From CAVSKL01 sp963728475 [NCBI: Candidatus Eiseniibacteriota bacterium] (lineage in GTDB: Bacteria > Eisenbacteria > RBG-16-71-46 > JABDJR01), in NCBI GenBank assembly GCA_963728475.1, contig CAVSKL010000001.1, positions 1 to 64,000 on the forward strand: 64,000 nucleotides of DNA. Reading direction: 5' to 3'. Shown piece by piece: positions 44,899 through 51,816 of the stretch. A program made the translations under genes and the position numbers. The notes under the pieces are model-generated. The model was not told the DNA's origin. It was given only the letters and a program-made list of their open reading frames with translations, and searched no databases. Each line of letters opens with the position of its first letter. Position 1 is the first letter of the stretch.

Positions 44899-45861
44899 TC
44901 AGTCTCCGGGGGAGGCGTTTCCCAGCCCGCCCACCAGCTCCCGCGCCGCGTCGCCCGGGGTGATTTCGCGCCGGACCACCCGGTCCAGCAGCTCCTCAAG
45001 CCCTTCGCCGTCCTCAGCCCGTACCCGCTCCAGGAGCGCCAGTCGCGCCTCGCCGAGGAGCCGGTGCTCCAGGGTGCGGCGGCGATGCTCCTCCAGAATA
45101 CCCGTTTCCACCAGCCAATGGCGGTGTGTTTCCAGCCAGTCCGCCAGCTCCGGCACCCCCTCGCCGCGGAGGGCGACGGCCCGCAGCACCTCCGGGCGCC
45201 GGCCCCGGCGGGGCCTGAGATCCAGCATCGATTCGAGGTCGTTGGCGAGCCGGTGGGCGCCATCCCGGTCGGCCTTGTTGACCACGAAGGCGTCGCCGAT
45301 TTCCATCAACCCCGCCTTCATGGTCTGGATCGCGTCCCCGCTCTCCGGAACCAGGATCACCGCCACCGAATCGGTGGCGTCGGCGATGTCCAGCTCGACC
45401 TGGCCCACCCCCACCGTCTCCACGAGAATCCGCGTGAAGCCGGCGGCGTCGAGAAGATCGAGGGCCTCCTCGGTGGCCGCGGCCAGCCCCCCCATGCTTC
45501 CCCGGGTGGCCATGCTCCGCATGAAGATCCCCGGGTCCTCGGAAAGTTCGGTCATGCGGAACCGGTCTCCCAGAAGGGCCCCGCCGGTGAAGGTCGAGGT
45601 CGGATCCACCGCCACCACCGCCACCCGCTCTCCGCGATCCCGCAGGAGGAGCGCCAGCCGGGCGATGACCGTGCTCTTGCCCGCCCCCGGCGGACCGGTG
45701 ATGCCCACCCGGTGCGCCCGGCCCGTCGCCGGGTAGACCCGGCGCAGGACCTCGGCGATTCGTGGATCGCGATCCTCCGCCCAGCTGATGAGGCGCGCCA
45801 CCGCGCGGGAATCGCGCGCGCTCAGCCCCTCGACGAGGGATTCGATCCTGTTTCTGTCCAC
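44899..45861 (-). CDS. meaB: MeaB/ArgK-type G-protein chaperone of acyl-CoA mutase
   Basis: 320 residues. G1 GPPGAGKS (56-63), the [16 protein letters not shown] switch region with Asp, [11 protein letters not shown] and the base-recognition NKAD are intact. Proteins of this family load cobalamin onto the mutase and protect it from inactivation. It is the first gene of the eleven-gene minus-strand run and lies 34 bases before the mutase gene. A strong promoter precedes it (46035-46063). Confidence 0.95.
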
Positions 45862-46034
45862 GAGACCTCACGGTGGGTGCGATGCGCGACGGGTCCGAAT
45901 GACGACGGTCCGCGCCGGACCTCCGCCGGATGCGAGGCGGCCACGCGCGGGCGCCGGGCGGGCGAAGGGTCCGCGGATGGCCGGCGCGGAGGCGCTGGCG
46001 GGCGCGGGTTCAAGCCGGTGAAATCCTGATGTAA

Positions 46035-46063
46035 ACGCTAGCAGGACTTGGGCTTGAGGTCAA
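46035..46063 (-). promoter_or_regulatory. Sigma-70-type promoter of the meaB-mutase operon
   Basis: On the minus strand: TTGACC (46058-46063), a 17-base spacer ending in TGC, then TAGCGT (46035-46040). It combines a 5/6 -35 match, ideal spacing and an extended -10. The predicted start is about 165 bases before the meaB ATG. Confidence 0.6.
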
Positions 46064-46185
46064 CGCACAGGGGGTGCCCGGGAGCGTGCGGATATTCCGA
46101 TTCCAAAATCTGGAAAGCGGCCTGGAGGAGTGCGAAATGCACGGTGGCGCCGCCGTCCCGCCCCCCGCCGGAGCCGTTTCCGGGG

Positions 46186-46231
46186 AAAAAATATGGGCGG
46201 ACTCGGCGGTGTCCGTGCGCCGAGCCCGCCC
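46186..46231 (-). terminator. Strong intrinsic terminator of the candidate RNA
   Basis: On the minus strand a 14-bp stem (GGGCGGGCTCGGCG with CGCCGAGTCCGCCC, one G-U pair) with a 9-base loop is followed by ATATTTTTT. It is the best intrinsic terminator in the window and directly abuts the hairpin of the candidate RNA. It lies about 150 bases upstream of the meaB promoter, so it does not end the meaB leader. Confidence 0.8.
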
Positions 46232-46375
46232 ACAGAGGCGAGCGGTGGATGGCTCTGGGCTTCCCTATCGATGGAGGTGCATGAGAGATCAGGAAAGCGC
46301 GCTTTGGTCCGCTCGCCTCTGTTTGCCTTGCATCGTCTCGCAACGACCTTGCACTTGTAATTACAGCAAGAAGAA
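46195..46375 (-). ncRNA. Candidate structured non-coding RNA, unknown class
   Basis: The minus strand folds into three consecutive elements before the terminator: CTTGC/GCAAG (46348-46370) with TGTAATTACA in the loop, a short TTGC/GCAA hairpin (46328-46343), and a perfect 14-bp helix ACAGAGGCGAGCGG/CCGCTCGCCTCTGT (46309-46322 with 46232-46245). Inside that helix a 10/13-base internal loop is closed by an inner GCTTTCC/GGGAAGC helix. A minus-strand AATAAT (46380-46385) could be the -10 box, giving about 180 bases. I find no tmRNA, RNase P, SRP or cobalamin-riboswitch core motifs. Confidence 0.55.
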
Positions 46376-46578
46376 GGCCATTATTCCCGGGGTGCGCGGC
46401 CGGCGTTCGCTGTACCATAACTCATTGCCAATAAATCAATTAGAGATGGAGTCGGCCGGACGCGGGCGCCGACCTGGAAAGGCGGGGCCGGCCGGTGATG
46501 GCGACCCGCCGGCCGGAGGTGGGCAGGAGCCGGCCGGATAGCCCCAACCCGCTGCGGGACTGCCGGATAGTTCGATGG
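46376..46578. other. AT-rich islet upstream of the candidate RNA
   Basis: No gene is visible. Bases 46423-46447 (CATTGCC-N7-CAATTA, then GAGAT) match 61997-62021. Read on the minus strand this gives TTGATT followed by GGCAATG, upstream of the candidate RNA. Confidence 0.35.
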
Positions 46579-46905
46579 CTAGCGGGGTTCCGGCGGTGGG
46601 GCTTTGGTTCCCGCATCAACCCGCCCGCTCTCCCCGGCGGAGGTCCCGGATTCGGACTTCCGCGCTCCCGGCGTCCGGGACGGGGTGTGCGGGTTCCACT
46701 CGGGCTTGAAGTCACCGCCCCGGCGGCGCCGGCGCTTGGGGGCCCCGGCCAGGGAGCGGCTCCAGTCCGGCTGAAACCGGCGCGGGCCCCGCATCCGGGC
46801 CACCTTGGACCGTTCCCGGTTCAGGAGGTAGATGAGTCCCAGATAGACCACGAGCAGGATGAACAGGAAGGCGGTGGCGGGGTGTTTGAAGAAGTGGTCG
46901 AGCAT
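46579..46905 (-). CDS. Small membrane protein with basic, Pro-rich tail
   Basis: 108 residues. One hydrophobic helix (about 10-27, ATAFLFILLVVYLGLIYLL) is followed by a very basic stretch (KRRRRRGGDFKPEW) and a low-complexity Ser/Pro/Gly tail. I know no family. ATG start with weak upstream pairing. The clean N-terminal helix and typical third-base GC make a real gene likely, but the tail may be disordered or poorly constrained. Confidence 0.5.
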   Translation of the reverse strand: MLDHFFKHPATAFLFILLVVYLGLIYLLNRERSKVARMRGPRRFQPDWSRSLAGAPKRRRRRGGDFKPEWNPHTPSRTPGARKSESGTSAGESGRVDAGTKAPPPEPR

Positions 46906-47333
46906 TGTGCAGGGTCCGGTTGCAAAGTGGCCGCCCGGAGAGCGAGGGGGCGGGATTTCGGGCCGGCCCGGCGCCGGGGGGCGGTGGCCTCCGCCGGTTT
47001 ATGTGAGGATGCCACAACGGGCTGCGGCCCGCCAGCCAAACCGGCACGGGTCTTGGCATCGCCCCTGCATAGACCGGTTATTGGATGCGGCCGGCGGCAG
47101 TCTCCCTGCCCGGCCCGTGAGGTTTCGCGTCGTTCGAGTCAACAAGCCGATTTTGGGATCAGGCTGCCTCTCCCGCGCGTCGGGAAGTTTCGCCGAGCCC
47201 ACTTCTGAATCGGATTCGTAACGGCCTGGGGCCCACGGCCAGAGTGGGGAGACTGGCGCCGGTCGCTTCTTTTCGGCGCCGGCCGCCTCTTCCCGGAATC
47301 CGCCTCTTCCCGGAATCCGCCGCTTCTGTTCGC
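46906..47333. other. Intergenic region with a sigma-54-like site and a 17-bp tandem repeat
   Basis: No gene. TTGGCATCGCCCCTGCA (47053-47069) has GG and GC ten bases apart, as in sigma-54 promoters, pointing to the plus strand, where no gene follows before the opposing yraN. Two perfect tandem copies of CCGCCTCTTCCCGGAAT lie at 47283-47316. Confidence 0.35.
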
Positions 47334-47726
47334 TCAGAGCCGGTAGCGGCCGCTGGCGGGGAAGGCGTTGGGGAGGTGGCGGACCAGAAGCGCTCCGCTT
47401 CGCCCCGGCGCCGGCTCGATCACCACCACGTCGAACCGCACCTTCACCGCGCGTAGCTCCCGGACCCGCAGGTACCCCACCGCCGCCGTCTCGATGTCGA
47501 GTTGCTTTTGCCGGTTCACCGCGCCGACCGCGCCTCCCAACCGCGGGCGCTCCCGGAACTTCACCTCCACGAACACCACGGTGCGGTCGCGACGGGCGAC
47601 CAGGTCCACCTCCAGCCGGCTGTAGCGGAAGTTCCGCTCCAGGATCGCGTACCCGCGCAACGCCAGGAACGCGGCGGCCAGGCTCTCGGCGTGGCGGCCG
47701 CGCTCCACGTGGGATCCATCCTTCAT
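47334..47726 (-). CDS. yraN: YraN-family endonuclease-like protein
   Basis: 130 residues from ATG 47726. The Holliday-resolvase-like nuclease core is intact: Glu39 and Asp41 in RLEVDLVARR, and Glu54/Lys56 in VFVEVKFRER. The early HVERGRHAESLAAAFL helix is typical. The role of the family is unclear, though it has a restriction-type nuclease fold. The gene is alone here, divergent from the debranching enzyme. Confidence 0.88.
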   Translation of the reverse strand: MKDGSHVERGRHAESLAAAFLALRGYAILERNFRYSRLEVDLVARRDRTVVFVEVKFRERPRLGGAVGAVNRQKQLDIETAAVGYLRVRELRAVKVRFDVVVIEPAPGRSGALLVRHLPNAFPASGRYRL

Positions 47727-47802
47727 GGCGATGGTTCGCCTTCCCGGAGGGGGGAGTAGGGGGCGGGGGCCTTGGCCGGACCCCGGGCGTCGCCGCATCC
47801 GC

Positions 47803-51021: not shown

Positions 51022-51336
51022 ACGGCGACGCCGTTTACCCACGGCGAGGATCGGACCCGGCCGGGGCCAGCCCGGTCAGGGCGCGTCCGGGTCCCGGATC
51101 ACCCGGGGCAGGACACGAGCCGGGAGTTCCCGGACGCGCCGGTCCGGTCCGTTTCAAGAGACGCCTTCCGCCGCCCTCCCGGGGGGACGGGCGGGGGATA
51201 GCCGCGGGCGAAAACGTGGAACCGCCCGGGGCCGTGAAGGCCCCGGGCGGTTTCCTGATCGTGGAAGTCCTGATCGGGGAGGTTCGCGCCCACCGAAGGG
51301 GGGGCGGAACGCCCGGCCCGGGAGGCCGGCCGGAGG
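51022..51336. other. Intergenic region between DUF1328 gene and rplS
   Basis: Besides the terminator hairpin at 51220-51252 no gene or motif is visible. Confidence 0.4.
51220..51252 (-). terminator. Terminator hairpin after rplS
   Basis: A perfect 14-bp stem (AACCGCCCGGGGCC with GGCCCCGGGCGGTT) closes a 5-base loop. On the minus strand CCACGTTTTCG follows, so the U-run is short and displaced. It probably ends the rpsP-rplS operon. Confidence 0.6.
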
Positions 51337-51816
51337 CTACTTCTTCTTGGCCTTGGTCTTGGAGACGGCCTTCTTGTCCGCCTTCTTCGGAGGCTTGGCG
51401 GCCGCTTCCTCGTTACCGGGCTCCACCGCCACCGCCGCGGCCATGACCTCGCTCGCCGAGGCCAGGTCGGTGGCGATCCGGCGGCCGGCGATGCGGGCCC
51501 GCTTGCCCTTGCGATCCTTCATATAGGTGAGTTGGGCCCGGCGCACCCGGCCCGCCCGTACCCGCTCGATCAGCACGATGTTGGGGGAGTGCAGCGGGAA
51601 AATGCGCTCCACCGCGATGTTGCTCGAGATCTTCCGGACGATGAAGGTCTCGCGGATCCCGCCTCCCCGGCGGCCGGTCACCGTCCCTTGGAAGACCTGG
51701 GTCCGGATCTTGTCGCCTTCGACCACCCTCACGTGGACGCGCACGGTGTCGCCCACCTGGAACTCGGGGATCTCGGTCTTGGTGTTGTCCCGTTCGACTC
51801 TCAGAATCGCCTTCAT
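51337..51816 (-). CDS. rplS: 50S ribosomal protein L19
   Basis: 159 residues. The conserved core is PEFQVGDTVRVHVRVVEGDK, FQGTVTGRRGGGIRETF, ERIFPLHSPNI and the VRRAQLTYMKDRKGKRARI end. A non-conserved Ala/Lys-rich tail of about 45 residues follows. L19 sits at the 30S-50S interface. It is the last gene of the rpsP-khpA-rimM-trmD-rplS operon, the standard bacterial order. Confidence 0.96.
   Translation of the reverse strand: MKAILRVERDNTKTEIPEFQVGDTVRVHVRVVEGDKIRTQVFQGTVTGRRGGGIRETFIVRKISSNIAVERIFPLHSPNIVLIERVRAGRVRRAQLTYMKDRKGKRARIAGRRIATDLASASEVMAAAVAVEPGNEEAAAKPPKKADKKAVSKTKAKKK

What the first reader, a model, noticed from the sequence alone, without database searches (positions are those of the whole stretch)
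46186..46385. Orphan minus-strand structured RNA with a strong intrinsic terminator
A perfect 14-bp helix with an internal loop and inner helix is immediately followed by a 14-bp GC-rich terminator stem and six U. The terminator lies upstream of a separate good promoter for meaB, so this is a free-standing transcript, about 180 bases, and not the meaB leader. I cannot match it to tmRNA, RNase P, SRP RNA or cobalamin riboswitch motifs. The layout (long helix, asymmetric internal loop, apical stem) recalls 6S RNA, but the length of the helix does not.
Basis: partly seen in the sequence, partly recalled or inferred. Interest (0 to 1): 0.7.

Follow-up and report, generated by a model that had tools for sequence, protein, structure and literature searches.

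The report
Orphan small RNA gene near meaB
A short RNA gene that folds into a long hairpin and ends at a very strong stop signal sits in front of a metabolic gene in an uncultured bacterium; it is probably a small regulatory RNA of a familiar general kind, seen so far in this one sequence only.

Summary
The minus strand carries a perfect 14-bp helix (46322-46309/46245-46232), an asymmetric internal loop and inner stem, then directly a perfect 14-bp terminator stem with six T (46231-46186). It folds far better than shuffles (z about -5); stringent intrinsic terminators occur at two places in the window. It looks free-standing: a TTGAC-type promoter for meaB (46063-46035) lies below the terminator, with a counterpart in all five relatives examined. 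It is not 6S RNA: the window's 6S lies elsewhere (47100-47254, plus; Rfam 46.2 bits, cut-off 46.4), and neither Rfam's nor a clade-specific 6S model matches the element. No credible homologue turned up in 86 held genomes, the closest about 60% identical in DnaB, so covariation could not be tested. Best reading: a lineage-specific regulatory sRNA of about 168 nt starting near 46354, perhaps from a sigma-54-type promoter (46380-46365), with an exposed CACCUC loop. The one test of that loop's targeting did not support it. It is a modest new member of a known kind. The more interesting by-product is a compact ~105-nt 6S RNA in Eisenbacteria-like and related genomes (38 of 59 searched), preceded in 26 of 38 by a strong sigma-54-like site.

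The parts
46365..46380 (-). sigma-54-type promoter candidate TGGCCTTCTTCTTGCT (GG-N10-GC), predicted start near 46354
   Evidence: score 12.9; 2.2% of 1000 dinucleotide shuffles of the 111-base upstream stretch reach it; 9 sites in the whole window (both strands, this one included) score as high. Inferred, not shown.
46360..46368 (-). alternative promoter: extended -10 TGCTGTAAT, giving nearly the same start
   Evidence: no TTG-N3-N16/18-TAnnnT promoter found at 46323-46470 minus.
46356..46365 (.). perfect palindrome TGTAATTACA between the -12 element and the predicted start: possible operator
   Evidence: only match in the window even with 1 mismatch allowed; expected 0.03.
46323..46354 (-). 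5' leader of the predicted transcript, small hairpin
   Evidence: fold; as part of the 78-nt piece 46323-46400 it is no more stable than shuffles (z -0.57).
46309..46322 (-). 5' arm of closing helix ACAGAGGCGAGCGG
   Evidence: 13 of 14 positions paired with probability above 0.96, the first 0.77.
46232..46245 (-). 3' arm of closing helix
46246..46308 (-). asymmetric internal loop, inner stem GCUUUCC/GGGAAGC and apical loop with CACCUC
   Evidence: fold; unpaired probability of the CACCUC stretch in the apical loop is 0.98-1.0; the next C is 0.47.
46186..46231 (-). intrinsic terminator: 14-bp GC-rich stem, 9-nt loop, six T
46035..46063 (-). separate meaB promoter candidate TTGACC-N17-TAGCGT, downstream of the terminator
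   Evidence: one of 2 matches of the pattern TTGAC[AC]-N16/18-TAnnnT in the window; counterpart in 5 of 5 relatives examined. Not found by the stricter scan.
44899..45861 (-). meaB (PF03308), next gene downstream
   Evidence: E 1.8e-88

Best explanation
A free-standing small RNA gene. RNA polymerase starts near 46354 on the minus strand, probably at a -24/-12 (sigma-54-type) promoter, and stops at the intrinsic terminator near 46187, giving an RNA of about 168 nt. Its long closing helix and the abutting terminator stem protect the 3' end, and the inner stem-loop presents an accessible CACCUC loop. The most likely action is base pairing in trans with G-rich, ribosome-binding-site-like stretches of mRNAs, lowering their translation. 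Shown: the DNA, the predicted fold, the terminator, and a promoter-like sequence for meaB below it with counterparts in five relatives. Inferred: transcription, the promoter type and the start. Inferred, and not supported by the one test made: targeting through the loop.
For: Fold z -5.2 to -5.4. Terminator of a kind found at only 2 places in the window. No coding signal: third-position GC of the overlapping 126-aa ORF is 0.65, against 0.87-0.88 in orf108 and meaB, and no Pfam match. meaB has its own promoter candidate downstream, with counterparts in 5 of 5 relatives examined. Terminator and closing helix are compatible, and the best fold with the terminator's 3' arm kept unpaired is about 20 kcal/mol weaker (-79.8 against -99.7), so no switch is evident. 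Sigma-54-like site at 46380-46365; the sigma-54 DNA-binding domain is encoded in 37 of the 38 relatives searched for it.
Against: No RNA data. No credible homologue in 86 genomes, so no covariation and no evidence of selection. The apical loop pairs with the start regions of 35 gene-like ORFs no better than shuffled loops do: mean -14.3 against -14.9 kcal/mol, and 229 of 300 shuffled loops did as well or better; it pairs better there than with 105 coding-interior stretches (-12.7), but shuffled loops were not tried on those. The sigma-54 score was devised here after seeing the 6S promoters, and its chance level (2.2%) is modest. The window's genome is not held, so rpoN and targets could not be checked in it.
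Confidence: 0.55

Rival explanations
1. Terminator and stabilising 3' end of the upstream yraN-orf108 transcript, not a separate gene.
For: orf108 (46579-46905) and yraN lie upstream on the same strand; no sigma-70 promoter of the pattern TTG-N3-N16/18-TAnnnT in 46323-46470 and none in the general scan; intrinsic terminators are rare here, so a shared one is plausible.
Against: It would need a 3' untranslated region of about 350 nt; promoter-like sites lie between; the long helix is not needed for termination.
Confidence: 0.22
2. Leader or riboswitch of meaB with a terminator as its off switch.
For: Same strand, upstream of a gene of cobalamin-dependent metabolism (the cobalamin link is general knowledge).
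Against: No Rfam riboswitch match; a meaB promoter candidate shared with relatives lies below the terminator; no competing antiterminator fold; the terminator is some 330 nt before the start codon.
Confidence: 0.05
3. A minimal or second 6S-type RNA that binds RNA polymerase.
For: Layout closing helix, bubble, apical stem; truncated Bacillus subtilis 6S-1 RNAs made of the central bubble and two short arms still work in vitro (PMC8876501, abstract read); relatives have ~105-nt 6S RNAs.
Against: No match to RF00013 or to the compact model R2; lacks the relatives' CCCUG, CGUGA and GGGCUGAUCCC strings, sharing only CUGAUC; the window already has a 6S.
Confidence: 0.05
4. A small inverted-repeat element (MITE-like) with 14-bp terminal repeats.
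For: 91-nt segment with perfect 14-bp ends; not found in the 86 genomes searched.
Against: No second copy in the window; no flanking target duplication seen by eye; the abutting terminator is unexplained.
Confidence: 0.08
5. Chance structure in a 70% GC genome.
For: GC-rich DNA makes strong hairpins; two other regions fold more extremely; loosely defined terminators are expected by chance at 0.8 per 1.4 kb.
Against: Two adjoining perfect 14-bp stems plus a six-T tract; 0 of 200 shuffles as stable; the 91-nt segment is less GC-rich than the window (0.60, against 0.70).
Confidence: 0.05

Closest known systems
Trans-encoded bacterial sRNAs with intrinsic terminators in general
   Same: Intergenic, promoter-like sites of its own, strong stem and terminator with U tract, accessible pyrimidine-rich loop.
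   Different: No known family; no chaperone site, target or homologue shown.
B11 / 6C sRNA of mycobacteria (C-rich loops; PMC10470900, passages read)
   Same: C-rich loop exposed on a stem, proposed pairing with G-rich sequences upstream of start codons.
   Different: B11 has two C-rich loops (passage); that B11 belongs to the 6C family is recalled. Here one loop, CACCUC, in a bubble-bearing stem. No Rfam match.
6S RNA (RF00013)
   Same: Closing helix, internal bubble, apical stem.
   Different: 91 nt rather than the model's 187; no sequence or model match; the window's 6S is a different RNA.

Membership tests
6S RNA (RF00013) | Covariance model match | tested here: not met
   No RF00013 match for 45900-46600 at E <= 10; the window's match is at 47100-47254 plus, 46.2 bits.
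6S RNA (RF00013) | Conserved sequence of the clade's 6S (R2 model) | tested here: not met
   R2's only window hit at E <= 10 is 47098-47255 plus, 15.9 bits, E 0.23.
6S RNA (RF00013) | Binds sigma-70 RNA polymerase and templates product RNA | not testable with these tools
   Needs biochemistry.
Known riboswitch or other Rfam family | Score at or above gathering cut-off | tested here: not met
   0 matches in the window; six weak matches in 45900-46600 at E 0.43 to 9.4, all far below their cut-offs.
Intrinsically terminated sRNA | Stable stem followed by U tract | tested here: met
Intrinsically terminated sRNA | Own promoter | tested here: inconclusive
   Sigma-54-like site (2.2% of shuffles) and an extended -10; no sigma-70 consensus site.
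Intrinsically terminated sRNA | Conserved structure with compensatory changes | tested here: inconclusive
   No credible homologue in 86 genomes.
Anti-Shine-Dalgarno sRNA (6C-like) | Loop prefers ribosome-binding sites over shuffled loops | tested here: not met
   229 of 300 shuffled loops as good or better over 35 start regions of the window; a small sample.

The most novel reading that the evidence does not exclude
In this lineage sigma-54 drives a set of non-coding RNAs: the 6S RNA (47100-47254) and, about 0.75 kb away on the other strand, this new sRNA. Both carry a -24/-12-like site shortly upstream, so that one signal would both restrain sigma-70 polymerase through 6S and repress selected mRNAs through the sRNA.
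Probability: 0.12. Interest if true: 0.55.

Novelty: new member of a known kind. Interest (0 to 1): 0.33.

Why it matters
By itself it adds one well-formed but orphan sRNA candidate in a deep, uncultured lineage. Chasing it exposed a compact 6S RNA below the Rfam cut-off in a poorly studied group, often with a -24/-12-like element at a fixed distance in front. If real, that would put the RNA that inhibits sigma-70 polymerase under the alternative sigma-54, which is directly testable.

Tried and rejected
DNA similarity to 20 relatives' genomes: 18 of 20 had matches at E <= 1, all short (the longest 38 query bases, best E 0.005 over 25 bases), taken as chance. A single-sequence covariance model R1 (made from two identical copies of the element) gave 3 weak matches at E <= 1 in 86 genomes (2 of 20, 1 of 47, 0 of 19). 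All three lie inside open frames of at least 150 codons and none is followed by a terminator with a T tract, so I rejected them. A first look at them had shown the wrong stretch for L136; one search replaces it. R1 is weak for remote homologues and the tool itself warns that an empty answer shows nothing. An exact loop pattern in viral contigs: none. Rfam on 19 meaB-bearing loci: only a cobalamin riboswitch in L008. Excess folding in the yraN-meaB gap of five relatives: none (z +0.2 to +1.7, 60 shuffles each). Three further loci with both genes but 2.3-4.3 kb between (L013, L022, L032) were not examined for promoter or gap folding. Loop-to-start-site pairing: not above shuffled loops. The coding reading of the 126-aa ORF was rejected on codon composition. 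A second copy in the window: none.

For the passing 6S note: RF00013 rang in 6 of 20 genomes, all below the cut-off. I first took the G069 hit (L144) for chance because I cut its sequence at the wrong offset; R2 later scored the same place at 127 bits, so it is a true member. In one search I gave R2 39 of the 60 handles then held outside the phylum of G006, and only part of the first-look candidates was scored (99 a genome; 150), so misses are not proof of absence; its 21 hits run from E 3.5e-5 to 0.046. The L147 minus-strand and window rows and the L147 plus-strand row (a near-copy of L146) were left out of the 37-row alignment A5. rpoN does not separate 6S genes with and without the -24/-12 site, since 37 of 38 genomes have it. 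Thus sigma-54 use rests on the motif and its spacing alone; 12 of 38 genes lack a strong site, three of the 26 strong sites (L159, L176, L177) lie at other spacings (20, 12 and 51 nt), and several rows are near-identical relatives.

Full report
WHAT IS THERE. On the minus strand, reading 5' to 3': a possible promoter zone (46380-46356); a short leader; a perfect 14-bp helix 46322-46309/46245-46232 enclosing an asymmetric bubble, an inner stem and an apical loop; and then, without a spacer, a perfect 14-bp terminator stem with a 9-nt loop and six T ending at 46186. The minimum free energy of the 200-nt segment is -88.6 kcal/mol, z -5.29, with 0 of 200 dinucleotide shuffles as stable. The 91-nt element alone has z -5.19 and the predicted 168-nt transcript z -5.4. 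Perfect 14-bp inverted repeats with a spacer of at most 150 occur twice in the window, and stringent terminators at two places. A scan for a helix abutting a terminator in 131 records (0.96 Mb, both strands) scored highest here, with weaker hits in six other records. Two results temper this: the looser terminator scan expects 0.8 sites in the surrounding 1.4 kb by chance, and in a sliding scan corrected for composition two other regions fold more extremely, 45241-45410 minus inside meaB and 51151-51340 plus.

SURROUNDINGS. Upstream on the same strand lie yraN (47334-47798, PF02021; the gene name is recalled) and a 108-aa ORF without a Pfam match (46579-46905); downstream lie meaB (44899-45861, PF03308) and the methylmalonyl-CoA mutase gene (PF01642). 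Of eight relatives' loci that hold both yraN and meaB, five have them close, with about 200-340 nt between. All five gaps hold a TTGACA-N17/18-TAnnnT promoter pattern and no excess folding; the other three were not examined. The window has the counterpart, TTGACC-N17-TAGCGT at 46063-46035, below the terminator, although the stricter general promoter scan did not list it. A 126-aa ORF overlaps the element, but its third-position GC is 0.65, against 0.87-0.88 for the neighbouring genes, and it has no Pfam match.

HOMOLOGUES. The window's own genome is not held. The nearest held genomes are Eisenbacteria-like MAGs by record title. MeaB reaches 57% over near full length in 47 genomes of one phylum (best partial segment 62%). 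DnaB (PF00772/PF03796) reaches 61% in 20 genomes of another phylum and 58% in 7 of a third. At this distance a small RNA is unlikely to be recognisable. DNA search of 20 genomes gave only short matches. The single-sequence model R1 on 86 genomes gave three weak matches, all inside long open frames and without a terminator.

IS IT 6S? No. Rfam found nothing at its cut-offs in the window, and no 6S match at the element even at E <= 10. RF00013 in 20 relatives gave six sub-threshold matches of about 106 nt, which led to a clade model R2 built from five of them. R2 hits once per genome in 17 of 20 and 21 of 39 genomes. R2's only window hit is 47098-47255 plus, at 15.9 bits. Rfam scores 47100-47254 plus at 46.2 bits, E 3e-8, just below the 46.4 cut-off; it folds with z -5.21. 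That is most likely the window's 6S RNA.

PROMOTER. No TTG-N3-N16/18-TAnnnT promoter precedes the element; an extended -10 (TGCTGTAAT, 46368-46360) does. A -24/-12-like site TGGCCTTCTTCTTGCT (46380-46365) predicts a start at 46354; 2.2% of shuffles reach its score, and 9 sites in the window, this one included, score as high. A perfect palindrome TGTAATTACA (46356-46365), the only match in the window even with one mismatch allowed, lies between the -12 element and the start and could be an operator. These are inferences.

MECHANISM. The element reads best as a free-standing sRNA gene: two stable stems, one of them the terminator, and an exposed apical loop with CACCUC unpaired at probability 0.98-1.0. 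Base pairing with G-rich ribosome-binding sites is the natural guess, by analogy with the C-rich loops of B11 RNA (PMC10470900, passages read). The one test made went against it: over 35 start regions of the window the loop pairs no better than shuffled loops (229 of 300 as good or better). With only 64 kb this test is weak. A switch is unlikely, because helix and terminator are compatible and no competing fold of similar strength was found.

PASSING FINDING: COMPACT 6S. In 37 aligned members the RNA is 101-109 nt. Invariant or nearly invariant are CCCUG near the 5' end, CGUG, GGGCUGAUCCC in the middle, AGU, CACG and GGGG near the 3' end. Of 23 predicted pairs, 11 have at least one sequence with both sides changed and the pair kept. 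Upstream, 26 of 38 genes have a strong GG-N10-GC site (1.4 expected from shuffles), 23 of these at 30-35 nt before the RNA; the window's 6S has TGGCATCGCCCCTGCA at 29 nt (1.8% of shuffles as good). The sigma-54 domain PF04552 is found in 37 of 38 of these genomes. On print: searches for 6S RNA with Eisenbacteria gave no paper, with sigma-54 and ssrS two papers (listing only), with covariance or distribution terms 133 papers of which 12 were listed, and with RpoN and promoter 34 papers of which ten were listed. I read passages of one of the last (PMC3459932), and they do not describe 6S as sigma-54-driven. I therefore cannot say that this is unreported.

Noticed in passing
window 47100-47254 (+): Most likely the window's 6S RNA: RF00013 at 46.2 bits (cut-off 46.4), E 3e-8, z -5.21, missed at Rfam's own threshold; a -24/-12-like site TGGCATCGCCCCTGCA at 47054-47069 precedes it.
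   Followed up: partly
L145-L182 (hit regions): A compact 6S RNA of 101-109 nt, one hit per genome, in 38 of 59 Eisenbacteria-like and related genomes searched with R2; where RF00013 itself was tried it stayed below the cut-off. 26 of 38 are preceded by a strong sigma-54-like GG-N10-GC site against 1.4 expected.
   Followed up: partly
window 51151-51340 (+), hairpin 51220-51252: One of the most extreme folds in the window, with a perfect 14-bp hairpin of 5-nt loop, just beyond the end of the ribosomal protein L19 gene (PF01245, 51337-51816 minus).
   Followed up: no
window 45241-45410 (-): The most extreme composition-corrected fold of the sliding scan lies inside the meaB coding sequence.
   Followed up: no
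window 46356-46365: Perfect palindrome TGTAATTACA, only match in the window, expected 0.03; possible operator.
   Followed up: partly
L008 10342-10514 (+): Cobalamin riboswitch, 114 bits, in a meaB-bearing locus.
   Followed up: no
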